A stretch of 64,000 bases of DNA from Pontederia crassipes. Its lineage: Eukaryota; Streptophyta; Magnoliopsida; Commelinales; Pontederiaceae. The stretch lies in NCBI GenBank assembly GCA_030549335.1, contig CM060194.1, forward strand, positions 72,266,077-72,330,076, given 5' to 3'. This document shows positions 7,839 to 38,806 of the stretch, piece by piece (the stretch's first letter is position 1; the number at the start of each line of letters is the position of its first letter). The position numbers were made by a program, and so were the translations under genes. Below the pieces are notes generated by a model. It did no database searches, was not told the origin of the DNA, and saw nothing but the letters and a program-made list of their open reading frames with translations.

Positions 7839-9049
7839 AAATATGTAACGCCCCCAAATCTATCTCCGTCACGTGGCGAAGATCAACCCGGGTATAGATT
7901 TAGGGGCTACGATATGCTATCTTGATATATTAGTTATGCTATGACTTTGACCATCATATTGATCATATCTCAGTCAAGAATCGAGACACGTCAGTGAAAG
8001 AAAGAATAAAAGAAAAAAAATAACTTTAATTGCGAAAGTTTAAAAGTGACTATATCATCTTTAGGAAATAAAATGAAGCTCTACACCATGAATTTATAAA
8101 TGTGGAAGGAAAAGAAATCTAATAAGGAATATAGTAAGCCTTGTAGTTCATGTGCTTTCTTATCATTAGAGTTTTGTCACCACACACCTACTCCACATCG
8201 TCACTGATCTGGTCTTGTGAAAATCTTCTTCTATAAGCTTTACAGCATAGTGGGGAACCACATGATATACAATGCATAACATGAATAGAATAATCAGAAG
8301 TAAATAATCATGTTTAATTTGAATGTGAAAAGGATAACATGACAGTATCATAGATCATAATAAGAGATGAATAAGATGATATCATAAATCATGAGAATCA
8401 AATGATGCTTAATAAACTTGAAATCATGAAATATTTCGAAATCATGACGATAACTTGACTTGATTTCATCATGCTTCTTGATCTTGGTTTATTATTAGAA
8501 TCAGGGTGACTTTAGGTGTTTTTAATTTTTGGGGTATGCCGAGCAAATGATACAGCCTTGTGCAAGTCAATAGGTGATCAAACTATGACCAAAGGAGCGA
8601 CCCTGATCATGAAGCACTTAGCTTGGATTAGCAACCCATTATTAGTCTTCTATCTGATCTTATTAATCACTTTGAGATCTCTTGATTTATTATTCATCAT
8701 GATAGGGGATGAAAAGAATCAATAGTAGAGTAAATCATCTTATGAGTTTATATCATGAATCAAGGGTGGACTATGAACAAATCAGATAGCATTAATTCAG
8801 TCATCATTATGATAGGAATATGCAAGATTCAAATCAGAATCAACAATCATTGGTAAACATGATAAAAAGAAGATAACTGGAAATCGGTCAATCGGTTCTA
8901 GGGAACGGTCGATCGGTAGGCTTTGGGTCGATCGATCGGTCTGCTTGGATCGGTCGACCGATGGGTTTAACAAATCTAACTCGAGGATGGACGGATCGAT
9001 TGATCCGTTCTATTGAACGATTGACCAGTCGGCTGGTAACACTACAAGA

Positions 9050-11060
9050 AAATTGACGATTAGCGACGCCATGTAACGCCTCAAAAGTGTGTGACGCTAT
9101 AAAGACGCCATTAGCGCCTCCATTGCGCTTCTTTAGTGTCACCAGAATCAAACGCCACTTGCCTCTCAATAGCGTCTTCCTAGCTACTCAGAGAGTTGAC
9201 GTTAAAAGTAGCGCAATCGAGACGCTACGTAGACGTTATTATTTCCCGCCAGAAATCGCAAATGCGCGGCAGTACCTAGCGCCGTTATGGCGTCGACAAC
9301 GTTAGATGCGAAACTAGCGTCGCATGTATGAAGACTATAAAGCGACGCTACATGGCGTTTCAATCGAAAGAGACGCTACAATATATATTTAAACACTATA
9401 TTATATATACTATATGTCAATCAATAAATTCATTAAATATTATATTAGTATTAATTACACGATTATCAACATATTATAAATAGCATAATATCAACATATA
9501 GATGTATTAATTACACGATTATATATATATATATATATATGTATTTTTACATGATAAGAGTGTTCCTAAATACATAAATTTTTTCCTATATTATCTATGT
9601 TATCTATACATATAATATATATAATATCTTTATTATGCATATATCTTAATTATACGTCTTCTTAGCTATTCAGCGGGTTGACGTTAACTCTCTAACGTTG
9701 TAATCGAGACGCTACGTAGACGCTATTATTTTGCGCCACTATTCTTAATGCGCGGCAGCACCTAGCGCCGTTTTGTCGTCGATCACTTTAGACGCGACAC
9801 TAGCGTCTCATGTCTGAAGACTGTGAAGCGACGCTATATGACGTCTCAAACAAAGGAGAAGCTAATGAGACACTACTGTATATATTTAAACACTATATTA
9901 TATATACTATATGTCGATCAATAAATTCATTAAATATTATATTAGCATTAAGTACACGATTATAAACATATTATCAATAGCATAATATCAACATATATAT
10001 GTATTAATTACACGATTATATATATATGTATTTTTACATGATAAGAGTGTTCTTAAATATATAATTTTTTACCTATATTATTTATGTTATGTATACATAT
10101 AATATATATAATATCTTAATTATACATATATTATTATTATATACTTAATCATGAAATTACGATGGTTGATTAAGTGAGTGATATGTTAGCATCACACTAG
10201 ACACACAATAGCGTCCACCTAGCGTTTAACGAGCACCGAAGCTATTGTCGACGCTATGATGACATCATGAGCGTCTCTCTAACGTCGCATGTTCGAGACG
10301 TCATATTGTTTTAGACGCTAGTTCGGCGCTACGGAGTCGCTAAATGAATCTAGCGACTCAATGGCGTCTGTATTGCGCCTCCTAAGCTGACTTTTTACCC
10401 CTCGCTCAATCGGGTACATATAGACATATAAATACGCATATATGCTGATACCTATATATAATAAGTGCATATATACATATTATTATAACCTAATCTGACA
10501 CATATAAACAAATACACACACATATATATATATATATATATTCACTTCAAATACGCATACATATACATGTTATCTATATATATATGACTCGCACATGTAT
10601 AGACATATACATACACATTTATATTTATAATACATATAGACGAAACACATTGTTGTAACTTAATCTCTCACACGTAGACATATATATACGTACACATATA
10701 TGACATATGTATATATATACACACAATTGTGTTATATACACATATACATACATATTTATAATTTTGTATACATACATGATAGATTATCGGAAGAAAATAA
10801 AACAACTGGAACCGAGCATAATGCGATGAGAGATTACATTGATAAATAAAATTACATACATACTAAAAAAATTTGAAAAAACTTTTATTGAGCATCTCAA
10901 TGGCGTCGCGATATTGAGACGCTACACAATTGCGACGCCCTGACGACGCGATGGTGTCACTACATTGTCTTAGCGACACATTAGCTTCTCTATAGCGCCG
11001 CGCTAGCCGAATTGTGACAGTTTCGACGCCTACATGGCGTCTACGTACGCTAAAAATTAC
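9050..11060. repeat. CACTA left subterminal repeat region
   Basis: Blocks dense in AGCGTC, GACGCT and GCGACGC in both orientations (9050-9370, 9690-9860, 10200-10400, 10890-11060) alternate with A+T-rich spacers of TATA-type simple sequence. Short motif arrays in both orientations near each end are the known transposase-binding regions of CACTA elements. The same motif set recurs at the right end (27180-27615). Short open frames here (8888-9169 minus, 9087-9305 plus) are repeat translations. Confidence 0.85.
9173..10137 (+). repeat. Tandem duplication, period about 482 bp, inside the CACTA 5' end
   Basis: The unit at 9173-9654 repeats at 9655-10137. Landmarks such as GTTGACGTT, GAGACGCTACGTAGACG, ATGCGCGGCAG and TACATGATAAGAGTGTTC recur at a constant offset of about 482. 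The copies differ by scattered substitutions and short indels, so this is an old duplication. It doubles part of the subterminal motif array. Confidence 0.85.
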
Positions 11061-11099
11061 TTAAATCCCTAACCCCTCTTCTTCATTTTCACTTTTACT

Positions 11100-11640
11100 G
11101 TTTACCATTTACCATCGCCCGACGCCCGACCTCCGACGCGCCCCAATGCCCGACCTCCGGCGCCCGTCGCCCGACGCCCGACCTCCGACGCCCGACTTCT
11201 GACGCCCTCCACTGCCGCCTCCGGCCTTCGCCCGAGGTCCGACGCCCGACGACCGCCCTCCACCGCCGCCTCCGCCCTCTGCATTCGACCGCCCTCCACC
11301 GCCGCCCTCTGCATTCGCCGCCACCTCCTCCTCCTCCGCCCTCCCTGACGGTTCGTCTCCGCCACGGTTCGCCTCCGTCGCGATTCGCCTCCACCGCCGT
11401 CCGTCGCGTCCTCCGCGGCCTCGTCCGTCCTCCACTCTTCGCCTCCGCCGCCCTCCGCCTCCACCGCCGCCCGTCGCGTCCACCGCCGCCTCGTCCGCCC
11501 TCCGCCGCGTCCTCCCTCCACCGCCGCCGACGTCCTCCACCGCCGCCTCGTCAGCCCTCCACCGCCGCTGACGTCCTTCATCGCCGCCACTGCCCACCAC
11601 CTCTACCGCCGTCTCGGCCGCCCTCCGCCCTTCGTCGAAG
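11100..11640. repeat. G+C-rich imperfect minisatellite
   Basis: A sharply bounded C/G-rich block made of CGCCCGACCTCCGACG-like units (11112-11260) passing into CCGCCGCCTC/CCACCGCC units (11260-11640), in otherwise A+T-rich DNA. It sits in the 5' part of the CACTA element, upstream of the transposase. Long open frames on the minus strand (three overlapping, up to 163 codons) are Arg/Gly/Ala low-complexity translations with no domain and run against the gene direction, so I do not call them genes. It may belong to the element's promoter or 5' leader. Confidence 0.8.
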
Positions 11641-12063
11641 GTACTAGCCCGCCACCATGTAAATTAAGTTAATTATTAATGCATGAAGTTAAATTAAGTT
11701 AATTATTCATGTTAAGTTAAGTATTACTTATTCATGTTATTATCATGTTAAATTAAGTAGTACTTAAGTGAATTATCATCTCTTTGGTTCAAGTTAGTAT
11801 TACTTACTAAGTATAATATTAAGTATCATCTCTTAGGAATTAAGTTAAGTATTACTTAAGTTAAGTATTACTTATTCATGTTATGAATTAACTTAAGTAG
11901 TACTTAAGTTAATTATCATCTATTTGGATCAAGTTAATTAGTATTACTTATTAAGTATTACTTAAGTTAAGTTAACTTATGTTAATTGTTAAGTTAACTT
12001 ATGAAGTAATTCATGTACTTAAGTTAAGTATTACTTATTCATGTTATGAATTAAGTTAAGTAT
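11641..12063. repeat. TTAAGT-rich degenerate repeat tract
   Basis: Built of irregular repeats of TTAAGTTAAGTATTACTT, TTATTCATGTTA and AATTATCATCT. It lies between the G+C-rich block and the transposase and has no coding potential. It is probably an intron or leader of the CACTA transposase transcript. Confidence 0.6.
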
Positions 12064-12122
12064 TACTTGAAACATGTGATTTTGGACTTAATTCGTAAGT
12101 TCAAAATCACACGTTTCAAGTA
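12064..12122. repeat. 26-bp inverted repeat (hairpin) upstream of the transposase
   Basis: Arms 12064-12089 and 12097-12122 are inverted copies (24 of 26 positions) around a 7-bp loop AATTCGT. The left arm begins TACTTGAAACATGTGATTTT. It lies 42 bp before the first transposase ATG at 12164. In RNA it would form a stable stem-loop in the leader or at the intron end. Confidence 0.85.
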
Positions 12123-12163
12123 CAAGAAATTTCTTACTTGGCTTAATGTTCTCCGTTACAGAA

Positions 12164-13550
12164 ATGATAAAGCCAGATCGTAGTTGGATTCGTCGTTGGA
12201 AGGATAAACATGGCGTCATAACTGAAGAATATAAGGATGATGTTATGAATTCATTAATGTGGCATATCAAAATGTAGGTGTTGCTTCTTCATATGACGAA
12301 ATCTTATGTCCATGCCGGAAGTGCAAATGTTATCAGTGGAAAGTAATATATGATGTGCAGAAGGATTTATATTACAACGATTTCTTACTTACATACACCA
12401 ATTGGTTCTTTCATGGTGAAGAAAGATGGGCTAAAGAAACAAGTAATGTAGATACCGTTGTGGGCGACTCGAGCAATCCGTACAGGGACATGATACGAGA
12501 TGCAATGTTAGGAGAAAATGTTGGCGAAACATCGATTGAAGAAGACCCGAATCCTTCGGCTTCTAAGTTTTATAATCTTCTCGAAGAGGCAGATGAACCT
12601 TTATGGAATGGATGCGTGAAGAAAACTACACTTTCTGTAGTGGCACAACTAATAAATTTAAAATTAGAATTTAATATGACCGAAAGTTGTTTTAACTGGA
12701 TGCTTGCCATTATTAAGAGTATGCTTCCAGTTTTCGATAAATTATCGGAAAATTTTTACAAGCGTAAATGGTTGATGAGAGATTTAGGGTTGGAATATCA
12801 GAAGATTGATGCATGCTGCAATCATTGCATGTTGTACTACAAGGAAAATAACTCACTTATGAGTTGTTCTATTTGTGACGAGTCTAGATTCAAGCCGAAA
12901 AAGAATACTCAAAATTCAAAAAAAATGTGGCAAATGCAATATTTAGATACTTTCCGATTGTTCCAAGATTACAACGACTATTTCTTTCTGAAAAAATTGC
13001 ATCATTTATGAGGTGGCACAAAGAAGGGGCACGTGAAGATTCAAATTCAATTACACATCCTTCGGATGCAGAGGCATGGAGACAATTTGATGCACTTCAT
13101 CCGGATTTTTTTGCAGAATCACGCAATGTTAGATTAGGACTTTGCACCGATGGCTTCAACCCATTTGGCTCATCGAGTACTGCTTATTCATGTTGGCCTA
13201 TTTTTGTGACACCGTATAATTTGCCTCCAAGCATGTGTATGAGACGAGAGAATATATTACTTATCTATATCATCTCGGGTCCTCGATCTCCTCGTAAAAG
13301 TTTAGATGTTTACTTAAAACCTTTGATTGATGAACTCAAGATGTTGTGGGAGGATGGCGTAGTTACCTATGACAAATCTAAAAAGCAAAATCATTAATGT
13401 GGACCATAAGTGATTTTTCGGCATATAGAATGTTGAATGGTTGGAGTACAAAAGGAAAACTTGCTTGTCCCATATGTGGAAAGAATACGAAATCCTTTTA
13501 TTTAAAAAATTGTAGGAAAGTTTGCTGGTTTGATTGTCATAGGATGTTTC
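12164..13550 (+). pseudogene. CACTA TNP2 transposase, N-terminal part (frameshifted)
   Basis: This is the transposase that would recognise and mobilise the CACTA element's ends. The ATG at 12164 opens a frame containing DRSWIRRWKD, the start of the transposase-associated domain found at the head of plant TNP2 proteins. The frame shifts near 12257 and resumes with the zinc-binding stretch LCPCRKCKCYQWK and FFHGEE. The TNP2 core follows: LGLEYQKIDACCNHCMLYYK at about 12786-12845, another shift near 12925, then RYFPIVPRLQRLF, MRWHKEG, RNVRLGLCTDGFNPFG, YNLPPSMCM and LDVYLKPLIDELKMLWEDGV. A third shift near 13390 leads to MWTISDFSAYRMLNGWSTKG, then CPICGK and WFDCHRMF, where the solo LTR interrupts the codon series. 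Three frameshifts make it a pseudogene. Family assignment is firm. Confidence 0.92.
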
Positions 13551-16500
13551 TGTAATATCCCAAATTTAATTCACATGTAATCACATGGATTAATATTATA
13601 TCATCTTATTGATAAGAAAATTGATATATGTGTTAATGCATGAGTTATGGCTCATAGTGTTTGATCGCTGAAATATAGCGAAAATTTGTTCAAGGCATGA
13701 AAATATGATCTTTGAAAATATTGGAATTAAGAAAATTAAAATTCCGATAATTGTTCCTATATATCAAAGTATTATAGATGTGATTTTTAACAATTTTTAG
13801 AAGGTGTTTTACTTAGGTAAAACATAGGTGCAAAATCGAAAAATCTGTGAAATCGCGATTTTTGCTTTTCGGACAAAAATTTAGATTTCGATTCATTGAT
13901 TATTTATTTTTATAAATATCTTATTTGAATCCAAATGGGGGGTAGTTCCTTATTTACATGTAATGTCTTAAGTAAATAAATAAATAAATGAAAAAGACAA
14001 ATCCAAATGGGGGGTAGTTCTTTATTGTGTTTGGCCGACTTAAGGTCGGTTGAACCCTGCCTTATCTTTCTTTCTCTACGTGTTCTACCACATCTTCTCA
14101 CTTCCTCACCTGCCCTATACGAAAATCCAAGTGAAAGAGGGGACATGTTCTACTAATGAAGCTATTTGAAGGGGAATTAGGGTTTTGCCATATGGTGAGT
14201 TCATACTTCACTTTATTTTGATTTCAATTACATAACTTTATAATTAGAATTTCTCTAAACCTTATCCATCTCATTCACTCTCGGATTTTAGCTAATCATG
14301 GGGCAAAATTCATGTTCTTCATGAGCAAAATTAACCCTAACCATGTTCAATTAGTTCCCAAATTTTTAGCTACATAATTACATACCTTCGGGTGGTCCCA
14401 AAATTATGAACTTTCTTCTGATTGATCCTCTATGAGTCTACTTTCATTGAGATTTGGAATCAAGTTAATAGGATTTCTGTAGATAAAGTTATGCTCTTAT
14501 CTTTATGGTACTATCACTCTGTCCGCCGAAATTGTAACCCAAATTTGTAAATTATGTATTAAATCTAATATGTCGTATAATTCTTTGATAATTTATGGTG
14601 TTATAGAAATTGTCGTTAAGTTTCATTGACAATTGGAATCACTAGAAAATGATATGTGTAGAGAAAGCTATAAATAATTTACCAAGCCTTACTCAGTCTG
14701 TCAGGAGAGAACTTATGGCAGATTATGCTAGTATTGATTAAATTTATTGTGCTCAGTACAAATAGATATAAATTTAAGTAATTTTATGAGTTGCACCTTA
14801 GGATGTCTACTATGTGGGAAAATTAAAAGAATCAAAACATGGAATGTTTATTATTTTATATAAATCATAGAAGTAAGGTTACTCAGTCTGTCAGGATATA
14901 GAAATAACATAAACGTTAGGCTGAATGTTGATTTTCATGATAACAAACCATAATGAAATAGGATATGAAACTTTTACAGATTATTGTCTATGTAATATAA
15001 AAGTAAATAAAATTGGAATGATGTCATTTGATTATGTATACTAGAAGATATGAATTTTTCTTTACTATGTGTACAATCTCTCACAATACTAAGTCAATCC
15101 TTATGTTTAATAGTTAAAAAGAGTAAATGTTTAAGCTTCATATACCATTTCAATTAGTTGTGTTTCATGTGTGATAGACTTCTGTTCAGAGCATAGAAGT
15201 GATGTGTTTCTTATTATTATTGTATAGGAGTAGAAGAGTAAAGTAGTGAAAAAGGAAAGGAAAAATCTTTTGGTAACTCTTATAGGTAAGTTTGTTTCTC
15301 TTACTCTATGTTTTCACCTCTTTGAATTCGGGGTGGCATCGATTATTATATTTATTGAATATGCTTTGGATATACTATGAATTGATTTCGAAAAATACAA
15401 TGATGAAAAGTATATTTGAATGATTGTATAATTGCACATTTGAAAAGCATATGTAATTTGACATGAATGGATTAGTGCAATCTTATTTCGTTTGAAATGG
15501 TGTTTGATATGATCCATCTTCTGATATTTGAGATACAATTGTTATAGATATTAAATTCATATATCGTCAAGTTTATATGAAAATTATGTTTTGAATGATT
15601 GATCAATTGATGATTCATTGGTAAAGCATATGTGAAATTTAATGAACCATCTTATGGGATGTAATCCTATTCCGTTTGAATGAGTTTGATTGATCTTCTG
15701 ATATTCGATATATGATCGTTATGTGATGAATCATGCATCTGCATATGCCTGCATTGCATGTATGATGGTTGGAGTTAAGTGCTACATCGCTGATCACGAT
15801 GAGAGCCACCTTTAGAATCCAATGCATCATTTTGTTCCCCAGATATGTGATGAGATAGACTTTAGCTAAGTGCCATATGGAGCTAAGTGCTACATCGTGG
15901 GGAGTCACGATGGGAGCCACCTCTAGAATCCGTAGGGGCCACCTCTAGAGTCAATATATCGCTATATGATTTGTTCTCCGAAAGGGATGAGGTAGAATGG
16001 AGCTAAGTGCTACATCGCTGATCACGATGGGAGCCACCTCTAGAGTCCACCTACCGACCACTGGCTAGTTGTGATTCGTGCATTCATATAAGAGTGTTGC
16101 ATTTGCATACAAATATTTGATATGATTTATCTGATATTGACTGCAAGTTGAGTGTGATGTTTCTTATTAATATGTTATATACGTAATTATCAAATATATG
16201 AAAATGCCTATTTTGCTATTATGATTATTCATGATTTTCTATGTCACTACGAATTGATTAATTGGTAACACATATGCTATGAGTTATCAACTTACTGAGC
16301 TATTTTGCTCATAATGTTTGTTTCTAATATTTTTCAGATCATAGCTTCTTGGATTGAGCGAGCTCATAATCTTAGCAGGGATAACTCTTTCGATGTAAAG
16401 GTATTGATGGGAGTTGTTATTCTCGTGTCATTTTGTTAGGATGTCGAGAGAGTTGGTCGAATTTATTATTTTTGTCAAAATAAGTTGTAACGAAAATAAA

Positions 16501-16715
16501 TTCATTTTGTAAAATGTAGGACTTAAGGAGTATCAGTTTGCTCTGAAATAATCACACATTTTGTAATTTATTTAATGATATATATTTTTACTCTTATGTT
16601 GTAAAAGGAAGAGTAAATTATATCATGTTTCCGCATTTCTTCATAATTTTATTTGATCGTCCGTAATGAGTCGCGAACTCTAATTTAACTCGCGGGTTAA
16701 ATCGGGGTCATGACA
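13551..16715 (+). mobile_element. Solo LTR, family A copy 1 (3165 bp), inside the transposase
   Basis: The ends are TGTAATATCC and GGGGTCATGACA, with a perfect 5-bp duplication GTTTC (13546-13550 and 16716-16720). TG...CA ends with a 5-bp duplication define an LTR. No PBS, coding region or second LTR is present, so this is a solo LTR left by recombination between the LTRs of an unusually long-LTR element. It is colinear with the copy at 33141-36402. Long TGTAATATCCC-type LTRs are common in Tekay/Del chromoviruses; the lineage is inference, as is the plus orientation, which rests on the TGTAAT start. Open frames inside (13910-14146, 15314-15538, 15639-15920, all minus) are not conserved as proteins. 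Confidence 0.92.
15776..16055 (+). repeat. Subrepeats inside the solo LTR
   Basis: Several diverged copies of a unit containing GCTAAGTGCTACATCG, ATCACGATG and GAGCCACCTCTAGAGTCC lie here (about 15777, 15880 and 16001). Related units sit at 35516-35760 in the second solo LTR, so the subrepeats belong to the LTR family. Confidence 0.75.
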
Positions 16716-16720
16716 GTTTC

Positions 16721-18307
16721 TGCCATTGGAGAATTCGATGCGCATTGATCGAAACTCATTTAAATAGAATACATCTGAGAACACTTTGTGTCCAACTCAT
16801 TTGATAGGAGAATAATTGCTAGAGCAAGTAAACAAGCTTAGTGAAGTCTCATTCAGACTGAAGGTCGGTAGTTATAAGCAAATTGGGTTTGGAAGTGAAC
16901 ATAATTGGGAGAAAAAAGTATTTTTTGGGAGTTGCCTTATTAGTCTTCAAACTTGGTACATCATAACTTGGACGTATAATATTATACATTTACCGACGAT
17001 TACGACCTTCGGAAATTGCGACGGATTTTGCGACGGATGGATATCCGTCGGAAATATCGACGGTCCTAATCGTCGAAAAATTAAATAATAATATAATTAA
17101 TTATATAATTAATTTTTTTTATTTTTGATGGTAAAAAATACATAATTTAATTTTTTTTATTTCCGACGGTCATAACCGTCGGAAAAATTGCGACGGATGG
17201 ATATCCGTCGAAAATATCGACGTTCCTAATCGTCGTAAAATTAAATAATAATATAAATTATTTTCGACGGTCATAACCGTCGAAAAATCCATCGAAAACG
17301 GAACCGTCCAAAAATCCGTCGTAAATTGCGACGGATTTAGAACCGTCAAAAATTATCCGTCGGAAAATCGCGATTTTCTTATAATGGTAATGCATGTGGA
17401 GAAGAACGTATTTGACAACATCTTCAACACTATTATGGATGTTAAAGGAAGAACTAAAGATAGCATACAGGCTCGCGAAAACATGAAATTAATATGCAAC
17501 AAACCAGAGTTAGATATCATTAATCTTCAAAATGGTAAATGCAAAAAGCCAAAAGCTACTTATGTCTTGAGCAATGATCAAAGAAAAGTGATTTTCGAAT
17601 GGGTAAAGCAATTGAAATTTTCCGACGGATATGTATCAATCATATCTCGTTGTTTTAACTTGGACAATGGGAAGATACACGGGATGAAGTGTCATGATTG
17701 TCATATTTTTATGTAAAGGCTGCTTCCAATTGCCTTTAAAGAACTTTGGTCAAAGGCTACCTGGGAGGTTTTAACAGAATTGTCTATGTTCTTTAAAGAG
17801 CTTTGTGCATCCATCGTTCGGAAAGAAGACATGTCTCGGTTAGAGGCTTCTATTGTGATTACCGTGTGCAAGGCTGAGAAGATATTTCCATCTTCTTTCT
17901 TTGATGTGATGGAATATTTGATTGTACATCTTCCATATGAAACAAAAATTGCTGGTCCAGTTCAGTATCGATGGATGTATCCTTTCGAAAGGTGCATGTT
18001 ATATTTGAAAAGGAAGGCGAAGAATAAGGCAAAAATTGAAGGCTCCATATGTGAAGCATATTTCATTGAGGAGGTGTCAAACTTCACTTCAAAATACTTT
18101 GAGCTGCACATACAATCACGACACACCCAAGTTCCAAGAAACGATGATGGTGGTGAAGGAGAAGTTGACATGAATATTCTATCCATCTTCAAGTACCCAT
18201 GTCGACTTATTGGTGCAAGAAGCAAAGTTATCTTGAATGACAAAGATCTCACCGCCGTTGAGAATTATGTTCTTGCAAATTGTAGCAAAGTGACACCGTA
18301 TCTCGAG
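16721..18307 (+). pseudogene. CACTA TNP2 transposase, middle part (interrupted by a MITE)
   Basis: The transposase continues from the duplicated GTTTC with LPLENSMRIDRNSFK, then stops that replace expected residues, LLEQVNKLSEVSF, GFGSEHNWEKK and a frameshifted WELPYW-like stretch, HNLDV. The MITE 16977-17386 falls exactly between V and M of HNLDV-MHVEKNVFDNIFNT. After it come MDVKGRTKDSIQARENMKL and ISRCFNLDNGKIHGMKCHDC, a stop in place of a residue at 17714, LLPIAFKELW, and the DUF4218-type block FPSSFFDVMEYLIVHLPYE, GPVQYRWMYPFERCMLYLKR, EGSICEAYFIEEVSNF. The exon ends near 18307 at a GTAAGG donor. These motifs and their order are those of plant TNP2 proteins. Stops and shifts make it non-functional. 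Confidence 0.9.
16977..17386. mobile_element. CACTA-like MITE, 410 bp, nested in the transposase
   Basis: It interrupts the transposase reading frame between two codons and is flanked by a 3-bp duplication GTA (16974-16976 and 17387-17389). The right end read inward is CATTATAAGAAAATCGCG, a degenerate CACTA-type terminus; the left end (TAATATTATACATTTACCGACG over two words) is less clear. Subterminal TCCGTCG/CGACGG motifs repeat in both orientations, and an internal unit GCGACGGATGGATATCCGTC occurs twice (about 17030 and 17191). A 3-bp duplication plus such ends fits a deletion derivative of a different CACTA family. Confidence 0.75.
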
Positions 18308-18390
18308 TAAGGCAATTTGTTCTAATTTGTTATATAATTTAAAGCTAATTGTTGCTATATGATTGTATTAATTGAAAACTATGAATTCAG

Positions 18391-19312
18391 GAAATTCGAA
18401 GAATTACAACGACAAATCAATCCGTTAGTTTCAAATGATGAGTTATTGAAACTACGAGACGAACATTTTGCCGATTGGTTGAGGTGTGAAGTGAGAAATC
18501 TTTCCGCTTGTTCTTAATTGTTATAAGTTCGTAACTTTTAATAAAATTTTTAGTTATTTTTTTGTAGGTTATTAATGGCTCAGTCATAGAGAACAAATAC
18601 GAGATCTCGGTCATGGCCCGAAGAAACAAGTTCTTAGCTACTGCGACATCATAGTCAATGGATATCGATTCCATACAGAAGAATATAGTCGACAACGTTC
18701 AACTATTAATAACGGCATATGTGTTCTAGGAAGCATGTACGAGGACGACGACTTTGATTACTACGGTGTTATGGAAGACATCCTAGAATTATCTTATTTG
18801 GGAAAATCTAACAAAGTCGTGGTGCTAAAATGTTGTTGGTTCGATCCAGAGAAAAGAGTTTGGATCGATTAAAAGTTTAAATTGATGGATATTAGCCCTC
18901 GATCGAGACTTCAGTCATACGGTCCATTCGTATTGGCGGAACAAGCACAACAAGTGTACTACACTAAGTATCCATCGAAAAGAACTAAGGATGAATGGTG
19001 GGCGTCATACAAGGTGAGGAGTAGACTATTCTTAGCAGAAACAATGGTAGATGAGAACGAAACATCATCCGTACACAACGATGTGCCCATGGATGATTAC
19101 TATCAAGAAGATAGAGTGAATGAGACGATTGATATGGCCGATGGAGTTGAGAATTTTTGTTGGTCGATGACGCTGAGCCAATGGAAGAGTTCAATTCAAA
19201 TGACATCTTGGATGTGAATTTCGATAATTTAATTGATGATGAGTCGAACCAAGATTATAGCGACGATGATGAAGATGATAAAAACGAATCAGAATACGAA
19301 ACAAATGAATGA
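18391..19312 (+). pseudogene. CACTA TNP2 transposase, C-terminal exons (DUF4216 region)
   Basis: After an apparent intron (18308-18390, GTAAGG...TTCAG) the frame reads KFEELQRQINPLVSNDE and DEHFADWLRCEV, ending near 18489 at a GTGAGA donor. After TTTGTAG (18567) a frame-shifted segment gives HGPKKQVLSYCDIIVNGYRF, then DYYGVMEDILELSYLGK, VVVLKCCWFDPEKRVWID, a stop, and YGPFVLAEQAQQVYYTKYP. This is the DUF4216-type C-terminus seen in TNP2 proteins. A further shift near 19155 restores an acidic tail (DYSDDDEDDKNESEYE) ending at TGA 19310-19312. Two shifts and one stop confirm decay. Confidence 0.85.
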
Positions 19313-19406
19313 ATCCCATAGTTATTCTAATGACATAAGCATTTTACTTTTTTTAAAAGTTATATATGGTTACCGATAATAAGAGAAGTTTCTTTTTTTT
19401 TTAGTC

Positions 19407-27639: not shown

Positions 27640-28511
27640 TTTTTTATGACTAGTTTATCGATCGACCGATCGGTGAGTAAGATAGGTACATCGGTCGACC
27701 GATAGGTTCATGCGAATCAATTGTGGGCTCAATTAATCGGTTATTGGCAATGCATACGGGTTGGTCGACCGATCGGCGTCTTGAAGGATTTCATACACGT
27801 TAATTCTCATAAAACCCTAACCTAATTACATCCTAAACTAATTATTATATCCTAAGAGTCAATCAAACAGTAATAGGACAACAAGAATCAAAACACATAT
27901 GCAAATAAATTCAAACAATAAAAAATCTAGAATCAAACAAGGCAAACAAGAACTTGAGGCCTTCTTCTCATTTTCTTCTTTTCATAATCAATTAGGCATG
28001 GACTAAAACTAATCAGAGGTCATGCAAGGTGATTTCAGTTCATCCACCTGGTTTCTATGTTCGTGCTTGAAGATCTATCCCGATCAGATGTGCACTTGTA
28101 CTCTCGCTGTTCGTGTGCTCATGGCTCCTCTGCAAATTGTTCTTCCACAATTCAATTCAGAGTACAGGGGTCGAGAGGAGATGTCAAACATGAGAGAAAC
28201 CTGAGGGTAACAATTATTTGGTCATGACATATGCGTAGGAGAAAGGGGGAGATGTCCTTGTTTTTACCGACTGTGAATCCACATGTGTTGTTGTGCGTGC
28301 ATGGAACAGTGGGGCATGGAGGGCTACATTTGGTCCTGTACGTGAGGAGAGAAAGGGAAGAAGAGAAAGAGAATTGATGTGCTTTTTGTGTGGGGAAAAG
28401 AGGATACAACTGTTTGTGAGGGTAGGAGTTTTTTTATATATAACTAGGGTAATTAAGGTTGTGATTATATGGACTTTTATGCGGACCCATCTTTTTTTTT
28501 TAGTTGTTACA

Positions 28512-28530
28512 TTATAACCTCCTTAGAAAA
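28512..28530 (-). other. Polypurine tract of the gypsy element
   Basis: On the minus strand, TTTCTAAGGAGGTTATAA runs directly into the LTR start TGTAACA. The preceding bases (AAAATTCGAGATTTTCT) resemble the conserved end of chromovirus polyproteins that merges into the PPT. This fixes the element's orientation. Confidence 0.7.
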
Positions 28531-29314
28531 TCTCGAATTTTGCATGGGGATAGAGGACTTACTGAGAATATGCGGGAACTCTTGGTGCATTCCCAACTCG
28601 AGCTTTCATGTTACCTCTTTGTCGTGGTGCACGAGGCTACTTGGACTGTGGGTACATGCTTATTCTTTCGAAGTTGTATCTTGTGTTCCATAATATGAGT
28701 CAGACACTTGACAAAGATGGGGTATGCGGCTAGGTTAGGCCCCTTAGTCCGAACGATGCTAGCATTATCACGCTTGTGCTTCTTGAGCAAGAACGCATGA
28801 AATATATAATGCACTCATTCATAAGAAGTGAATAGTATCAGCCTATATGCAACCTTGTCGACTAAAATTAATATTTAAATGGTCCATCGCAGTAAGGACT
28901 AATTGCTCTTATTTACCTATTCGCATTACTTATTTCATATGGGAAACTTTAAGTAGCATTTGATCACCAATATTAATGATATGTTTTCGTACACCTTCAT
29001 TTGCATAGCTCTTCTACTTTTGACCTTTTCTTAATTCGTTCAACCTTCTTAACATATCCTGTTTATTCATGATTTTCTCTTTGTCTATTTCACCTAATTG
29101 AGTAGGTGAACAACAAGGTAGCCAATATAATTGAACGGTGTCCTAAAATATTTGAATGGTGACCGTTATCATAAGTAAATTCGATCAAATACAAATGATC
29201 ATCCCATCCACCATGATATTCCAATGTACATGCTCTCAGCATGTATTCCAAAGTCTGGATAGTTCTTTTATCTACTAAAATTTCAGTGTATATTATTATA
29301 AGTGTTCGGGTCAA
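28530..29314 (-). pseudogene. Gypsy integrase C-terminus and chromodomain remains
   Basis: On the minus strand, reading down from 29314, comes the integrase core end RTIQTLEYMLRACTLEYHGG, then WDDHLYLIEFTYDNGHHSN, which matches the usual RTIQTLEDMLRAC / LIEFAYNNSYHSS signature of Ty3/gypsy integrase. After several stops follows VAYRL, VHYIFHAFLLKKHKR, then IMEHKIQLRKNKHVPTVQV and EFPHILSKSS. These correspond to the GPY/F-like region and the chromodomain (ILDRK..LRNK.IPLVKV pattern) that closes chromovirus polyproteins. The integrase would insert the element's cDNA and the chromodomain targets heterochromatin. Stops and shifts are frequent, so it is dead. The order and the adjacent PPT confirm minus orientation. 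Confidence 0.82.
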
Positions 29315-32207
29315 TAACTTCCTTAAAAGGAGTGTTAGTGAATACGCTTATCATTATTTTCAATCACATTACTATATCACAACCTAATGAGCAAGCACTT
29401 ATATTTACTCTTCTAAAATTACATTAAAATTTTTCAACATGCTTTGCACTTACTATCATTTCTTTTGTCTTTATATTTTACATATTCCCAATCTATAATA
29501 ATTGCAGTTAGATACGATTAATTAATCACACTATAACGCCATCTTTGACCTTTATATTTATCATTAGTTAAGTTCTTTAATATTTCATTTTTTCTTTTGA
29601 AATCTTTATATTTCCTAATAGTTTAACATTAGAATTTAAAGTACAACTTTAACACAATCCCATAATTTTTGTAAGCCCTACAGATCATTACATCTATGAG
29701 TTGGATCAGAAGATAGTTATTGATCTAGTAATATACATCAGAACTTCAAGAGTTTAGTATCTTATGTCAGTAAATCATTTAGATTTAACATCGTCTAATG
29801 TCGATGTTCTTGTGGTATAGTGTGATGATCGTCGCCTATAGGTATGGTTACTTGGCCTTCGACTTAAATCAGATATCTTGAGGGATTGAACAAAGTCCAA
29901 AAATGGATAATTGCCAAATGAGACAATTATATTCGAAGTCAATCAAGAGTTTATCAATCATTTGAGGGTGAATCATTCATGGCAATTTATGTCATTATAA
30001 TAGGGTGATTTCTTAATCAATGTCATTCATTATCCTTTTATGTCTCAACTCCCTGTACCAATGTCTTATTCGATATGCTTATCATGAGAGTTGCCTTCAA
30101 TCTTAACTTCTTAGTTTACATTGATATGTTTCTTGCAATGTCATATCATATAATTTCATAGGAGGTCAGTGGTTATATGTTACCACAACAAGTTCTTTCC
30201 TTGAGTATCTTGAAGCATTGTGAATCAATGTTAAGATCAAACGATATCTACGATGAGGGGTCGATCACATAGTAAGATCTAATACCTAATGTACAAAACA
30301 ATTTATGGACACTACATAACATATGTCCTCAGTCAAACATCATGAATGCAGATGAACACATAGAATGAATTCAAACAATAATACATGAAAATAAAGCAAG
30401 CAACAAAATAGAAAACAAACAATCATCCATCTTCTTTGCCATCATTTCATTGTTCTTTGCATTAACGATATCTTGTAGCACATGGGAGAGGATCGAAATA
30501 ACTTTAAGATCGAAAAGGGAAAATCAATCCATATATAAAACCTATGATCAAATCATGAGTGGTTCCCTTGATCAAGATAAAAGCTTGAACATTTTTCATC
30601 ATATTGACGTAGAGACATCTTAGAGAATATTCCATGTATCATCTTATATTTTGCATCTTAGAGAACATTCTGTGTATCATCTGATGGCTTGCTTAACTCA
30701 TTATCTAAACATATATATACTTTATTTTCCCTCTTGAACCATCAACCATGATTATATGATTAATTACCCTATATGTTTTGGACATTATTATGAAACTAAT
30801 AAATATATCCATAGTCAAGATAAATCAATTAAAATTTTTAGTTTACTTCATAATCATCCTTCTCATGTACATAACTTACTTCTCTAATAACTTTTTAGGG
30901 GACTTATAAAATTCCTCATACTTTACCTTAAGCCCCCATACTTTTTAAAATTTGCTTGCTTGATGTTTTGATCTTTTAGTACTTAATGGTTGGGACTCAT
31001 ATCTTCCTTAAGCATATCTCGGTTAAGAAACTTTAATCGTTTCAAAATTTCTCACGTTCATTTTAATCCTTTCATGCTTTGCCTATTATTATATAATTCT
31101 TTTATTTTTCTTGTATCAACCATATGAGTCTATCTTGAAAATATATTTACACTACTATGTTATATATACATATGCGTATGAGTATGCTAGATCTAAATGT
31201 TTGATTAAGTCAGACGATCATTTATTTACTGATAATTTCTTCTAACATTTATTGAAATCAATGTGGCCTCTGAACCCCTTGAACTTCTATATTAGCCCAT
31301 TCATACATTATACATGATTCTTGGACAGCTTTCCCTAATACTTAAATTCTTGTTTAACCAATATTACATACCTTGAACATGATTAATAATTCTAATTCCT
31401 ATTTCCAATATAAGGTAATCCAACTAGAAATTCGTATAACTAATTTGAATTTGCTTAGAACCTTTATCAACATAATAAAGGGATCATATGAAGTCTAAGG
31501 CACAAGAAGCATTATGGGTCCCTACTTATTAATATAAACATATAAGATAATTTATTATACCCCTATCTTGGTAAACCAATAAAATCCCATAAGTCATGAT
31601 AGTAAATCATAACTTAGGCATGCTTAGTTTCACACATAAATTCACTTCAACTATTTTGGAATCATCTCACACCTTCGTGTTGTGTGAGTCGAATCCTTTA
31701 ATTACTTTTATAATTCCATCATTTTTTTCTTAAATCTACATCTCTTTGCAACTGATATGCTTATTCATTTTCCTCTTCATACTGCTGCAGTCAGTAGAAG
31801 AAGTCCATGAATAGGACGATCATGAAAAAGATGGAAAACATGAATTATAAGAAACAAAAATCGTTTCTTATATTTTATTCTTTAAATATCTGTAAGACTC
31901 ATTCTTCATGTAGGTGTACTTATCCACATGCTTGTTACTTATTCTTTTCTAATTTGTTCATTACCTTTATGACCCTTTTGTCTAATCACTAATAACATTT
32001 AAGTTGATTCCTACCATACATAATAACCTCCTTAGGAATCAACCACTCATATAAAATATATATCAATACATCAATAAAGAATAACTCAAAGCAAGAAAAA
32101 TCTTACATATACTTTACGGTGGAGGGTGTGATGACTGCTCGACGAAAACACATGAACTTGTATCATACTATCTTATACAATAGGACGTCAAAAGAGTCCT
32201 GACTTTA
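29315..32207 (-). other. Decayed internal region of the gypsy element
   Basis: Here a full element would carry gag, protease, RT and RNase H on the minus strand. I could not recognise any of these motifs. The region is A+T-rich, without a long frame on either strand, and at 2.9 kb is shorter than an intact gag-pol minus its 3' end. Deletions plus heavy mutation are likely. Confidence 0.6.
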
Positions 32208-32224
32208 AGCTCTGAAATTATAAA
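32208..32224 (-). other. Primer-binding site of the gypsy element, initiator-Met type (mutated)
   Basis: On the minus strand, just inside LTR 2, the sequence is TTTATAATTTCAGAGCT. Plant initiator tRNA-Met primer sites read TGGTATCAGAGC. Nine of those twelve positions match, including the full TCAGAGC core. Confidence 0.7.
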
Positions 32225-35200
32225 TGTAACTCCCCCAAATCGACCACCGCCATGTGACGAAGACCAACCTAGAGACGCTACGACATGCTATGACTTTGAC
32301 CATCATGTTGACCATATCTCAGTCAAGAATCGAGACACGTCAGTGGAAGAAAGAATAATAAAAAATAAAGAAAAAAGAATAACTTTAATTGCGGAAGTCT
32401 AAAAGTAGCTATATCATCTTTAGAAAATAAAATAAAGTTCTACACCATGAATTTATGAATGTGGAAGGAAAAGAAATCTAGTAAGCCTTGTGGTTCATGT
32501 GCTTTCTTGTCGCTAGAATTTTGTCACCACACACCTACTCCACTTCATCACTGACCTGGTCCTGTGAAAATCTTCTTTCGTAAGCTTTACAGTATAGTGG
32601 GGAACCATATGATAATGCATAACATGAATAGAATAATCAGAGGTAAATAATCATGCTTAATTTGAACGTGAAAAGAATAGCATGACAGCATCATAGATCA
32701 TAATAAGAGATGAATAAGAGAATATCATAAATCATGAGAATTAAATGATACTTAGCAAACTTGAAATCATGGCATACTTAGAAATCATGTCGATAACTTG
32801 ACTTGACTTAATTATGCTTCTTGATCTTGGTTTATTATTAGAATCAGGATGACTTTAGATGCATTTAATTCTTAGGTATGCCGAGCAAACGATACAGCCT
32901 TGTGCAGGTCAATGGGTGATCAAACCATGACCAAGGGAGCGACCCTTCTCATGAAGCACTTAGCTTGGACTGGCAACCCATCATTAATCTTCTATCTGAA
33001 CTTATTAATCACTTTGAGATCTCTTGATTTGTCATTCATCATGATAGGAGATGAAAAGAATCAATAGTAGAGTAAATCATCTTATGAGTTTATATCATGA
33101 ATCAAGGGTAGACTATGGACAAATCAGATAGCATTAATTTTGTAATATTCTCAAATTTATTCATGAATTAATGCACCTAACTAAAAATTAATTAAGCTAA
33201 TTACTCTATTAAGTATGATATGTAGTTTAATTCATTCATAATAATTTATGAAATAATTGTGATTTTATTAACTTATCCATTAGGATTTAGGAATCATTAT
33301 GTCAATGGCCATATTGTATTTAATATTGTTAACTGCTTGAAGCAATCAATATGATTATTTGCTAGCTAAGCGAATTAGTTATTTAATTATCTTTCAAATA
33401 TATTCATAATAGCATAAGATAATAATATATAATTTGTTTACCTCTCGTCTGTGCTCCCACCAGCTATCAGCTATGGGACTAATACTCTTACCTTTAACTC
33501 ACTGCCACCGTCATACTCCAAGACATGACACCTGGTTAATATATTTAGTTAATTATTTAGTAGTTATCCAAATATTTTCCCCCCACGTGCCTCAAGCTAA
33601 AGCCATAGTCACAAATAATATATATATATCCATTGGATATTATTTGAATATGGAGAGATAAAAAAAAAGAAGGAAAGAAGAACTGAGCCCATGTTAGGCG
33701 TCAGCTGGATGGAAAAAAAATAAGGAGAAAGGATTTAGATGAAAAAGAAGATAGAAAGTTATCAAATTAAGGTACGTATGAGACGCATCTATTTAATTTC
33801 TTTTAATCTTCTCAGCAAGGGACCAAGGGTAGATAGAAGCATCTTCATGATATTGATCGAATTGATAGGAAAAATAATAGAACAATTAATCAGAAACCAA
33901 AAATTAATTGAAGCGCATGTGACGTTTTAGCTTTAAATCTTAGAATAGGATGTTTAGTCATTTAACAAAATATTATATTGTGAATTAAAAAGAAAATTCA
34001 AAATTGGACCGTATGATTCCTTGAAAGTGTAGTCTCCAGAGAATAAAATAATTATCATAAAATTTTATTTATTTGAAAAATTATATACCATCATATGAGC
34101 ATATATGACGCTGTCCGGACAGAACTAGTGAAACATATTGGAAATTATGCAATAAAGCATATACTTATAATTAAACTAAGAAATTCATAAGTATTAGACC
34201 TAGTTTGATTGAGGTCCTAATTCAATTTGTAGCAGTTAAAAGACGTTAAATAGGAAAAGATTTAAATAACATAGTAGCTACATCTATGTATGGTTATTAG
34301 ATTTTTAAACATACCTATCACCACATAATTTTCAGGAAATTATCTTAGATAATATAAATTATGAAACCAAGCACATTAACTCCCTTATGAGTCTATTTCT
34401 TTGAGATTTGGAATTAGGTCAATCAGATTTTTAAAGAAAGAATTATAGCTCATCTTTAGAGTTTCGTCGTCATGTATGCTGAAAGTATTATCCAATTTTG
34501 TAAATCAAGTATTAAATCTAATAGGTGATATAATTATTTGATAATTTACGGTACATCATATACTGATGTTAAGTTTCATATACGATTGGTTCATTTTAAT
34601 AGGTTATGAATAGACAAAGTTATAAATTATTAACTAAGCATTAGTCAGTATGTCCATACGAGATTTAGAGAGGATACTATTTATTAAATTTATTATGTTC
34701 AGTTCATAGTGATATAGACTATAATAATTTTATGATTTAGATGTTAATAAGTCTATTTTTAGAGAAAATCAAAAGTATGAATAACGGAGTTGTTTATGAA
34801 TTTATATAAATCATATAATCAAGGTCAGTCAGTCGACCTAGTCAAACGAAAAATCTAAGTTGGATGTTGATTTTCGTGGGACCGATCATGAGAAAATAAA
34901 GTTTCAAACTTTTATTGGCTAGTCTCGTATTATACTTTCACATAAACTTAGATTCATGATATTTAATTACGCATAATGAAATATGGAGTTTGTTTAAGAA
35001 AGTAATTGTCATGATTATGTGAATCAACAGTTACTTGAACTATATGATCCACGGCATGAATAATATATAACCTTGGTCATCATTGTATCTATGTAATATA
35101 TGTTGGCATCCACATCAAGTGTTGATAAGAATGTACATTACTGTTATAGGGTTAAATGAATGATAGGAAAGGAAATGAGGAAACACCTTGTGTGATCCCT

Positions 35201-37525
35201 TATGTCAAGTAAGTTGATTTCTCCTATTCTATGTATTCACCTCTTTTGAATTCGGTGTGACATTGACTATGATATTATTGAATATATTTTGGATATATTA
35301 TGAATTGATTTTGAGAAATGCAATTATAAAAAGTATATATGAATGATTGTATGATTGCACATTTGAAAAGTATATGTGATATGATTTGAATCAGTTACAA
35401 GAAGTGCAATTTTGTCCGATTTGAAATGGTCTTTGATATGATTCATCTTTTGATATTAAGATGCAATTGTTATATGATGAATCATGCATTTGCATTGCAT
35501 TGTATGATGGTTGAAACTAAGTGTTACATCACTGATTGAAGCCATCTCTAGAATCCAATCCATTATTTTGTTCCCCAATAATGGGATGAGATAGGCTGGA
35601 GCTAAGTGCCATGCGGAGCTAAGTGTCACATCGTGAGTAGTCATGATGGAGGCCACCTCTAGAGTCCACCTATCGTTATATGATTTATTTTCCGAAAGGG
35701 ATGAGGTAGAATGGAGCTAAGTGCATCCCGATGGGAGCCACCTCTAGGGTCCACCTACCGACCACTGGTCAGTTGGTGATCCGTGCATACATATAAGAGT
35801 GTTGCATTGCATATACATGTTTGATATGTTTAAGTAAAAATGAATGTAAATTGAGTGTAATGATTTTGATTGGGATGTTATATATGTATTAGTAAATGTA
35901 TGAAGATATTGACTTTGATATTGTGATTAATGTTTGTGTTTTTTATGTCTCCCCAAATTTATTAGATGGTAACACAGCTTATGAGTTATCAACTTACTGA
36001 GCTATTTTAGCTCACTCTATTGTTTCCAACATTTTTCAAATAATCATGGGAATCATGCGAGTGAGAGTATTTGAAGGGTTCGTGGTAAGATGTAAAGATT
36101 TGAGTCCCTCATATCCTTCTATTAGGATGTCGAGAGGTTTAGTTATGTGTAATGGATAGGTAAAATTTTATGTGTTGTAAGAAGGCAAAGTCATTTTGTG
36201 AAATGTAAAACTTAAGGAAGTTGATTTGCTCTGAAAGGATCATCACATATTGTGTAATTTGTTTAATGCTATAATTTTATTCTTATGTAAAAATAAAAAA
36301 TAAATTCTATCATATTTCTGCATTCTTTCATAATTTTATTTGATCGTCCGTAATGAGTCACGAATTCTGATTTAATTCGTCGGTTAAATTGGGGTCGTGA
36401 CAAATTCAGTTATCATTATGATAGGAATACGCAAGATACAAATTAGGATCAACAATCATTGATAAACATGATAAAAAAAAGATCCTAGAAATTGGTCGAT
36501 CGGTTATGGGGAACGGTTGACCGGTAGGCTTTGGGTCGATCGACCGGTCTGCTCGGATTGGTCGATTGGTGGATTTAACAAATCTAACTCGTGAATGGAC
36601 GGATCGGTCAATCCATTCTATTGAACGATCGATCGGTCGGCTGGTAAAACTAGTATATCGATCAATCGGTCGGTAAGTAAGATAGGTACATCAGTCGATC
36701 GGTAGGTTCATGCGAGTCAACTGTGGGCTCAATTAACCGGTCGATCTATTGATGGCAATGCATACGGGCTGGTTGACCGATCATCGTCCTGAAGGATTTC
36801 ATATACGTTAATTCTCATAAAACCCTAACCTAATTACATCCTAGACTAATTATTACATTCTAGGAGTCAATCAAACAGTAACAGGACAACAAGAATCAAA
36901 ACACATATGCAAATAAATTCAAACAATAAAAAATCAGGGATCAAACAAAGCAAACAAGAACTTGAGGCCTTCTTCTCATTTTTTTCTTTTCATAATCAAT
37001 TAGGGCATGGACTAAAACTAATTAGAAGTCATGCAAGATGATTTCAGTTCACCAATCTGGTTTCTACGTTCATGCTTGAAGATATGTCCCGATCAAAGGT
37101 GCACTTGTACTCCTCGTTGTTCGTGTGCTCGTGACTCCTCTGCAAGTTGTTCTTCCACAATTCGATTCAAAGTACAGGGGGTCGAGAGGAGATGTCGAAC
37201 AGGAGAGAAACTTGAGGGTAACAATTATTCGGTCAGGACATATGCGTAGGAGAAAGGGGGAGATGTTCTTGTCTTTACCGGGTGTGAATCCACGTGTGCT
37301 GCTGTGCGTGCATGGAGCAGTGAGGCATGGAGGGCTGCATTTGGTCCTGTACGTGTGGAGAGAAATAGAGGAAGAGAGAGAGTTGAGGTGCTTTTTGTGT
37401 GGGGAAAAGAAGACGTGTGGCTGTTTGTGAGGGTAGGGGGTTTTTTTTATAACTAGGGTAATTAAGGTTGTGATTATATGGGCTTTTATGTGGGCCCATC
37501 TCTATTTTTTTTTTGAATTGTTACA
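32225..37525 (-). repeat. LTR 2 (5' LTR in element orientation), split by a solo LTR
   Basis: The LTR consists of 32225-33140 and 36408-37525, about 2034 bp, homologous to LTR 1. The duplicated target base set (AATTT left, AATTC right) surrounds the inserted solo LTR; LTR 1 keeps the uninterrupted site ATTAATTCAGTCATC at about 8797. Palindromic CGATCGGT/ACCGATCG clusters lie at 36490-36790. A minus-strand TATA-like TTATAAAAAAAACCCCC (37436-37452) about 75 bp inside the 5' end is a candidate promoter. Open frames at 37031-37430 are out of frame with those in LTR 1 and are not genes. Confidence 0.92.
33141..36402 (+). mobile_element. Solo LTR, family A copy 2 (3262 bp), inside LTR 2
   Basis: The ends are TGTAATATTC and GGGGTCGTGACA. 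The 5-bp duplication AATTT/AATTC (33136-33140 and 36403-36407) has one mismatch, and the pre-insertion sequence in LTR 1 shows AATTC was original. It is colinear with 13551-16715, including the GAGATTTGGAAT and CAACTTACTGAGCTATTTT landmarks and the GAGCCACCTCTAG subrepeats. There is no internal domain or second LTR. It looks somewhat more diverged than copy 1, including a changed first ten bases. Open frames at 33434-33930 and 35456-35656 have no counterpart in copy 1. Confidence 0.9.
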
Positions 37526-38806
37526 AAATATGAGTTTGGAATGTATTAAACTACATAAAAATTTATTATACCATAATAAAAAAATTGAATACTTATGAAT
37601 TAATTATATAAATAAAACTTAATAAATAGAAATGAACTCCAAGGACTCCTATGATTTTTTTAGGGGACCATAGTTCAAATGGATCGATTTCCTTCTATTA
37701 AGAAACCCCAGCCCGTAAATTGTATTTGGTCTAAAAGAAATTTATATTTTTGTTCAATTTTTCTAATAGAATATGTTTCCGGTCATATTTTTCTTACACT
37801 CCTACTTATTCCTATTTATGTTTCACTAGCATTCTTATTCTATTAATTTATATAAGGAGGTTTCAAAACTTTTTCTGACTTAAGGAATTTTGATTGCAAA
37901 ATTAAGTTTGTTATGATATTATTATTATGTAACATTTTTTATATTTTTTAAATATATTTGAAATTCAAAGTAAAAAGATGAAAGAATTGTTTAAACTAAA
38001 CAATGAATCAATTTTATAGAGTTCCTTATTCTTAATTGCATCAAATTTATAGTTTTTAATAAGTAAAAATGGAAGAATTTTTTTAAAAAATTTCCTAGTC
38101 CTAGTCAAATTATTTGGATTTTATTCTTTCTTATATATATTTTTCTCATACTAGCTTCTCTAAAAGGACGATAATGCACATAATAATTTAACTAAAGATG
38201 AGATGAAGTGAGATCCACTTCAACGAGCGGATAAAAAAGTTAAGAAAGAAAAAAGAATTCTGATGAAAAATTTGTGAACTAAGATGTTAATGTTTAAATC
38301 TATCTTATGATAAACTTATATGGATATGTATATAATTTTTAACCTAAAATATAATAATAGAATCTTTTGTCAAATGATTCTTTCATGTATTTCACATTAA
38401 CAATTATTACCATAGACTTGCTTTACTGAATTTAATTCCAAAGTAACGATAAAATGTATGCTTCATGCCAAGGCGTTAACTATTCTCAAGAAAAATTGCT
38501 ATGATCAAGCTGGTGCAAAAGAAACATTGAGATAGATGCATTTGCATACATTTACATAATTGTATAAAAAATGAGAATTTAATCATAATGTTATTTATAG
38601 TTAAACAATATAACTTAAAACATATTCTTATCTTAAAATAAGTTATCAACATAATTTGAAGTTCATGTTTTAAACAAATAAATTATTTTATAACAATTAT
38701 ATTTATTAAATATATCCATTTAAGTATCACAAAATTTTAATAAAATTTAGTTATAAAAATACTAGACTTCTTTTTAATCGTGCAATGCGTGAACGTGTTC
38801 ACTATA

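What the first reader, a model, noticed from the sequence alone, without database searches (positions are those of the whole stretch)
7839..37530. A complete five-insertion transposon nest with readable duplications
A gypsy element (duplication AAATA) contains a CACTA element in one LTR and a solo LTR (AATTT/AATTC) in the other. The CACTA element in turn contains a solo LTR (GTTTC), a MITE (GTA) and a LARD-like element (GAAAC). Five of the six elements are bounded by visible target duplications, so relative age order follows directly. Such a fully resolvable nest is a good calibration case for insertion dating.
Basis: partly seen in the sequence, partly recalled or inferred. Interest (0 to 1): 0.7.

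Follow-up and report, generated by a model that had tools for sequence, protein, structure and literature searches.

The report
Ordinary plant nested transposon stack
A stretch of apparent plant DNA holds one old LTR retroelement into which five younger mobile elements jumped, some inside others; the reading is correct, but such nests are commonplace and one of its two datable layers shows signs of a disturbed clock.

Summary
The nest is real. An LTR retroelement (7844-37525, duplication AAATA) carries a CACTA-type transposon (9040-27639) in one LTR and a solo LTR (33141-36402) in the other. The CACTA-type element carries a second solo LTR of the same family (13551-16715, GTTTC), a miniature element (16977-17386, GTA) and a LARD-like element (20995-26204, GAAAC). 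The LARD-like LTRs give K 0.050, younger than their host, as expected.

Three claims need trimming. The nest gives only a partial age order. Only two of the six elements can be dated. One of these two has unevenly spread differences (a 298-bp identical run; K 0.065 against 0.020), best explained by gene conversion between its LTRs, so it is a poor calibrator. Published work already compared 4,126 nested pairs and named this problem (PMC7251063). The outer element is probably Ty3/gypsy on the minus strand, but no protein domain was detected in the pieces scanned. Ordinary; low interest.

The parts
7844..37525 (-). Outer LTR retroelement, probably Ty3/gypsy, probably minus strand; duplication AAATA at 7839-7843 and 37526-37530
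   Evidence: TG...CA LTR ends and AAATA flanks. Orientation is inference: purine-rich tract beside 28512 and a primer-site-like stretch (recalled) beside 32224 on the minus strand; no Pfam domain in the pieces scanned
7844..9039 (-). Left LTR, outer segment
   Evidence: aligned to 32225-33140 and 36408-36647
27649..28511 (-). Left LTR, inner segment
   Evidence: aligned to 36648-37525; 859 columns, 81 differences
32225..33140 (-). Right LTR, inner segment
   Evidence: 906 aligned columns, 85 differences
36403..37525 (-). Right LTR, outer segment
   Evidence: begins with the right copy of the solo LTR B target duplication
28512..32224 (-). Internal region of the outer element, 3.7 kb, decayed or deleted
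   Evidence: longest minus-strand open piece is 85 codons; 11 of the 35 listed pieces scanned, none above a Pfam cut-off
9040..27639 (+). CACTA-type transposon with degraded transposase; no target duplication visible
   Evidence: terminal repeats agree at 26 of 28 positions (my count on the output); Transposase_21, Transpos_assoc, DUF4218, DUF4216; GACGC-type words, chosen after reading the sequence, 21 and 30 in the two ends against 1 in a stretch of the middle
13551..16715 (.). Solo LTR A (TSD GTTTC 13546-13550 / 16716-16720)
   Evidence: related to solo LTR B; the Transposase_21 match breaks off at its left edge, at profile position 173 of 213
16977..17386 (.). 410-bp miniature element, CACTA-like by duplication size (TSD GTA 16974-16976 / 17387-17389)
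   Evidence: inverted repeats weak at the extreme ends
20995..26204 (+). LARD-like LTR element, 5.2 kb (TSD GAAAC 20990-20994 / 26205-26209); LTRs 20995-22359 and 24822-26204
22534..23475 (+). Open reading frame of 314 codons in the LARD-like element; no family assigned
   Evidence: 0 of 2,000 shuffles of the internal region give a stop-free stretch as long as the 322 codons around it; Pfam only a sub-threshold hit
22038..22335 (+). 298-bp stretch of the left LARD LTR identical to 25883-26180: probable gene-conversion tract
33141..36402 (.). Solo LTR B (AATTT 33136-33140 / AATTC 36403-36407)
   Evidence: the other LTR has the site uninterrupted, with AATTC, 4 of 60 bases differing; related to solo LTR A

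Best explanation
Stepwise nested insertion in what appears to be a plant genome. An LTR retroelement integrated (duplication AAATA). Later a CACTA-type element entered its left LTR, and an LTR element that shrank to a solo LTR (B) entered its right LTR. Inside the CACTA-type element a relative of B also left a solo LTR (A), and a miniature element and a LARD-like retroelement inserted. Solo LTRs form by recombination between the two LTRs of one element (established knowledge; not shown here). After its insertion the LARD-like element most likely had the 3' part of its LTRs evened out by gene conversion (inferred). Shown here: containment, duplications, the undisturbed homologous site of B, and divergences. 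Inferred: mechanisms and absolute ages. At 1.3e-8 per site per year, about 4.1 My for the outer element and 1.9 My for the LARD-like one, or 2.5 My from its first 900 columns alone (the rate as used in PMC7251063, seen in a passage; not calibrated for this species).
For: End-to-end alignment of the outer LTRs in pieces; duplications against chance. The B site with one target copy matches the other LTR at 56 of 60 bases. Transposase_21 runs up to the left edge of solo LTR A and is cut there, with DUF4218 and DUF4216 further on, beyond A and the miniature element. CACTA-type terminal repeats, domains and subterminal words. LARD K 0.050 (0.038-0.063) against outer 0.108 (0.092-0.123). Uneven LARD divergence: 0 of 2,000 plain shuffles reach the 298-column run and 0 of 5,000 stratified ones.
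Against: No target duplication for the CACTA-type element, and nine extra bases at its 3' junction. No protein domain in the scanned pieces of the outer element. No full-length relative of either solo LTR was seen; the genome search did not complete. The solo LTRs align poorly over their first third (there the left limit of A was set 5 bases and its right limit 1 base too far right). That one frame is open across the single-copy sites of A and the miniature element is weak evidence: 9,803 of 20,000 random joins of the same size have an open frame, and beside the miniature element the left flank has a stop 12 codons before the junction in that frame. Uneven divergence could reflect local mutation rate; the stratified cusum control was reached by 5 of 5,000 shuffles, and its strata are partly set by the differences themselves.
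Confidence: 0.93

Rival explanations
1. The uneven divergence of the LARD-like LTRs is not gene conversion but a low local mutation rate in an AT-rich stretch.
For: The last 461 columns hold fewer C/G columns (126 of 461) than the first two blocks of 450 (169 and 158); most differences are transitions (49 of 65).
Against: The rate per C/G column is also lower there: 8 of 126 against 32 of 169 and 22 of 158; 0 of 5,000 stratified shuffles reach the 298-column run and 5 of 5,000 the cusum range. The outer LTRs show no significant unevenness in any of three segments.
Confidence: 0.25
2. The two 3.2-kb 'solo LTRs' are something else, for example non-autonomous units that insert as such.
For: No full-length relative is in hand; their first third is poorly alike.
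Against: Length, TG...CA ends, 5-bp duplications and two related copies without an internal region all fit solo LTRs.
Confidence: 0.07
3. The order is an assembly artefact or the product of rearrangement rather than insertion.
For: No reads or second assembly were available; the CACTA-type element has no duplication.
Against: Four of the five inserts, and the outer element, carry a duplication (one with a mismatch); the B site matches the other LTR; the CACTA-type insert is flanked by adjoining halves of an LTR whose other copy is continuous there.
Confidence: 0.02

Closest known systems
Nested LTR retrotransposons of plants as surveyed by Jedlicka et al. (PMC7251063; abstract, sections 13 and 15 and passages read)
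   Same: Nested and host LTR divergence compared; nested element mostly younger; gene conversion between LTRs proposed as the disturbing factor, with converted stretches most often 100-1000 bp
   Different: This is one locus, with DNA transposons and solo LTRs among the layers; here the nested element is the less diverged (in the paper 1042 of 4126 pairs, 25%, were reversed)
Nested plant LTR retrotransposons and their target preferences (PMC6911290; abstract and outline read)
   Same: Nesting common; families with high nesting frequency more often Ty3/gypsy
   Different: They report LTRs as not commonly targeted by nested LTR elements; here both direct insertions into the outer element lie in LTRs, which make up about half of its own 7.8 kb, and one of the two is a DNA transposon
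CACTA (En/Spm) transposons (PMC10741241, passages read)
   Same: CACTA terminus, short inverted repeats, over 10 kb, transposase domains
   Different: 3' end reads TAGTA, no 3-bp duplication visible, coding region broken by insertions and stop codons
LARD elements (PMC6696364 and PMC10741241, passages read)
   Same: LTRs, length over 4 kb, no recognised retroelement protein
   Different: Carries a 314-codon open frame of unknown kind

Membership tests
LTR retrotransposon (outer element) | Two LTRs aligning end to end with TG...CA ends and a 4-6 bp duplication | tested here: met
Ty3/gypsy superfamily (outer element) | RT-RNaseH-integrase domains in gypsy order | tested here: inconclusive
   11 of 35 listed open pieces scanned, none above a Pfam cut-off. 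An integrase-like stretch on the minus strand at 29093-29347 is recalled resemblance only
CACTA | Starts with CACTA/CACTG, short terminal inverted repeats | tested here: met
   CACTA at the 5' end; 26 of 28 inverted-repeat positions agree (counted)
CACTA | Ends with TAGTG/CAGTG | tested here: inconclusive
   reads TAGTA, one base off, at a junction with nine extra bases
CACTA | 3-bp target duplication | tested here: inconclusive
   none visible; the 3' junction is damaged (nine extra bases), so loss cannot be told from absence. Hence 'CACTA-type'
CACTA | CACTA-type transposase (Transposase_21 / tnp2) | tested here: met
   Transposase_21 E 1.7e-50 and 8.8e-14, DUF4218 4.8e-42, DUF4216 4.4e-9, Transpos_assoc 1.9e-9
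Solo LTR (A and B) | TG...CA, 5-bp duplication, no internal region | tested here: met
   B has 4 of 5 bases (one mismatch is tolerated in PMC4290129, passage)
Solo LTR (A and B) | Identity with an LTR of a full-length element | not tested
   genome search did not complete
LARD | LTRs, over 4 kb, no coding capacity | tested here: inconclusive
   5,210 bp with LTRs, but a 314-codon open frame; called LARD-like only
TR-GAG | GAG domain as only coding domain | tested here: not met
   no Pfam gag match up to E 0.1 for 22510-23475; a diverged gag could be missed
MITE (CACTA-like) | Under 500 bp, terminal inverted repeats, duplication (3 bp for CACTA) | tested here: inconclusive
   410 bp and GTA duplication; the extreme ends are only weakly inverted

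The most novel reading that the evidence does not exclude
The LARD-like element is not coding-free but belongs to a lineage of non-autonomous plant LTR elements that keep one uncharacterised protein of about 314 residues, perhaps a fast-evolving structural protein, while borrowing the rest from other elements.
Probability: 0.3. Interest if true: 0.3.

Novelty: new member of a known kind. Interest (0 to 1): 0.12.

Why it matters
As a worked example it shows how duplications and an undisturbed homologous site together prove a nest, and how an element inside it can still give a distorted date. It adds one well-resolved locus to thousands already compared in print; it does not change any view of the field.

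Tried and rejected
Searching the window's own genome for full-length relatives and for the organism: not completed. Pfam on pieces of the outer element's internal region: nothing above a cut-off; HCV_core (E 0.0022, 18.8 bits, cut-off 23) and DUF4635 (E 0.042, 13.8 bits, cut-off 27) are taken as chance. PDB sequence search of the integrase-like piece: one chance hit at E 1.5. Pfam on the two pieces flanking the miniature element (16816-16974 and 17390-17713): no hit. Rfam on the window: 0 matches at gathering scores. Rsd_AlgQ on the LARD frame (15.5 bits, cut-off 35) rejected as chance. Open frames across the single-copy sites first looked like strong support; a control showed that 9,803 of 20,000 random joins also have one, so they are no longer used as support. 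Considered and rejected: that the duplications are chance, and that the nested element is older than its host (0 of 5,000 bootstraps). The split of the LARD LTRs at column 900 was chosen after seeing the data; the run and cusum tests do not depend on it.

Full report
Observation. The window is AT-rich; plant origin is inferred from the element types, and no tool named the organism. Self-comparison gives the expected collinear pairs: 7936-8797 with 32285-33139 (89.1%), 8794-9044 with 36403-36652 (86.9%), 27649-28511 with 36649-37525 (88.6%), 20995-22359 with 24822-26204 (93.4%), and the two solo LTRs with each other at 14431-16715 and 34386-36402 in three pieces of 70-80%.

Global alignment of the outer LTRs was done in three pieces, leaving the inserts where they are. 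Together they run from the first base (TGTAAC) to the last (TTACA) of both LTRs: 2,005 aligned columns, 197 differences, K2P 0.108, 95% bootstrap 0.092-0.123 (a first version with slightly wider segments gave 2,010 columns and 0.107). The LTRs therefore align end to end, with gaps (16 in all). The nine bases at 27640-27648 were left out before the count; they lie at the 3' junction of the CACTA-type element and have no clear counterpart.

Junctions. AAATA flanks the outer element, GTTTC solo LTR A, GTA the miniature element and GAAAC the LARD-like element, all exact; AATTT/AATTC flanks solo LTR B with one change, and the CACTA-type element has none. In the undisturbed copy of the B site, in the left LTR, the word is AATTC, so the left copy beside B is probably the changed one; 56 of 60 bases around the site agree. 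The Transposase_21 domain runs through two open pieces (12888-13394, profile 3-117; 13382-13549, profile 123-173 of 213) and breaks off at the left edge of solo LTR A; DUF4218 and DUF4216 follow beyond A and the miniature element, while the pieces on either side of the miniature element have no Pfam match. With one copy of the duplication, the flanks of A and of the miniature element each leave one open frame, but 9,803 of 20,000 random joins do so too, so this is not counted. The LARD-like element lies just upstream of what looks like a 3' splice site (by eye).

The elements. CACTA-type: 18.6 kb, of which about 8.8 kb are inserts; terminal inverted repeats agree at 26 of 28 positions; GACGC-type words, chosen after reading the sequence, number 21 in 321 bp and 30 in 470 bp at the ends and 26 in 911 bp further in, against 1 in 1,301 bp of the transposase stretch. 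LARD-like: 5,210 bp, LTRs of about 1.37 kb, and a 314-codon frame within a stop-free stretch of 322 codons, a length that 0 of 2,000 shuffles reach and no family explains. Outer element: LTRs of about 2.05 kb around an internal region of 3.7 kb. On the minus strand a purine-rich tract stands before one LTR and a stretch recalled as similar to a methionine-tRNA primer site after the other, so I read it as a minus-strand element, probably Ty3/gypsy; no domain confirms this in 11 of the 35 open pieces listed.

Ages. The LARD-like LTRs give K 0.050 (0.038-0.063), lower than the outer element in all 5,000 bootstrap draws. But their differences are unevenly spread: per 100 columns (the last block 61) 4, 11, 5, 12, 6, 7, 5, 3, 3, 4, 3, 0, 0, 2, with an identical run of 298 bp (22038-22335 and 25883-26180) that no shuffle reproduced, plain (0 of 2,000) or stratified by C/G context (0 of 5,000; cusum 5 of 5,000; the strata are partly set by the differences themselves). 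The first 900 columns give K 0.065, the last 461 give 0.020; the split was chosen after seeing the data. The outer LTRs show no significant pattern of this kind in any of three segments. Gene conversion between the two LARD LTRs is the most likely cause; a low local mutation rate remains possible. Even the first 900 columns stay below the outer element (1 of 5,000 draws reversed), so the order survives, but the date shifts from 1.9 to about 2.5 My at the rate used in PMC7251063.

What the nest does and does not order. Outer element before the CACTA-type element; that before each of solo LTR A, the miniature element and the LARD-like element; outer element before solo LTR B. Nothing orders A, the miniature element and the LARD-like element among themselves, or B against the CACTA branch. 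Solo LTRs, the miniature element and the CACTA-type element cannot be dated from one copy.

Comparison with what is known. Nesting is an everyday feature of plant genomes. PMC7251063 (abstract, sections 13 and 15 and passages read) compared 4,126 nested/host pairs, found 1,042 with the divergence order reversed, and proposes gene conversion, predicted in 25% of LTR pairs, as a cause. PMC6911290 (abstract and outline) studied 1,491 nested pairs. PMC4290129 (passages) treats nested insertions, solo LTRs and CACTA elements on a wheat chromosome.

Verdict. Observation confirmed, interpretation partly supported, ordinary. The only open point of mild interest is the unexplained open frame in the LARD-like element.

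Noticed in passing
13551-16715 and 33141-36402: The two solo LTRs, one in the CACTA-type element and one in the outer LTR, belong to the same family (70-80% in three pieces over roughly the last two thirds).
   Followed up: partly
48562-50804: A head-to-tail duplication of about 1.12 kb, 99.7% identical, hence probably recent; a diverged inverted relative (72%) lies at 47601-47973.
   Followed up: no
50584-52259: Minus-strand pieces with RVT_3 and zf-RVT matches: probably remains of a LINE-like element, overlapping the end of the duplication.
   Followed up: no
42444-43350: A fold-back of about 0.9 kb with arms 81-85% complementary, probably a miniature inverted-repeat element.
   Followed up: no
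43760-44029: Three tandem copies of an 89-bp unit, 98-99% alike.
   Followed up: no
9173-10141: A diverged tandem duplication (83.5%) in the 5' part of the CACTA-type element, more diverged than the outer LTRs and so perhaps older than this insertion.
   Followed up: no
22534-23475: An open frame of 314 codons without a recognised domain inside the LARD-like element.
   Followed up: partly
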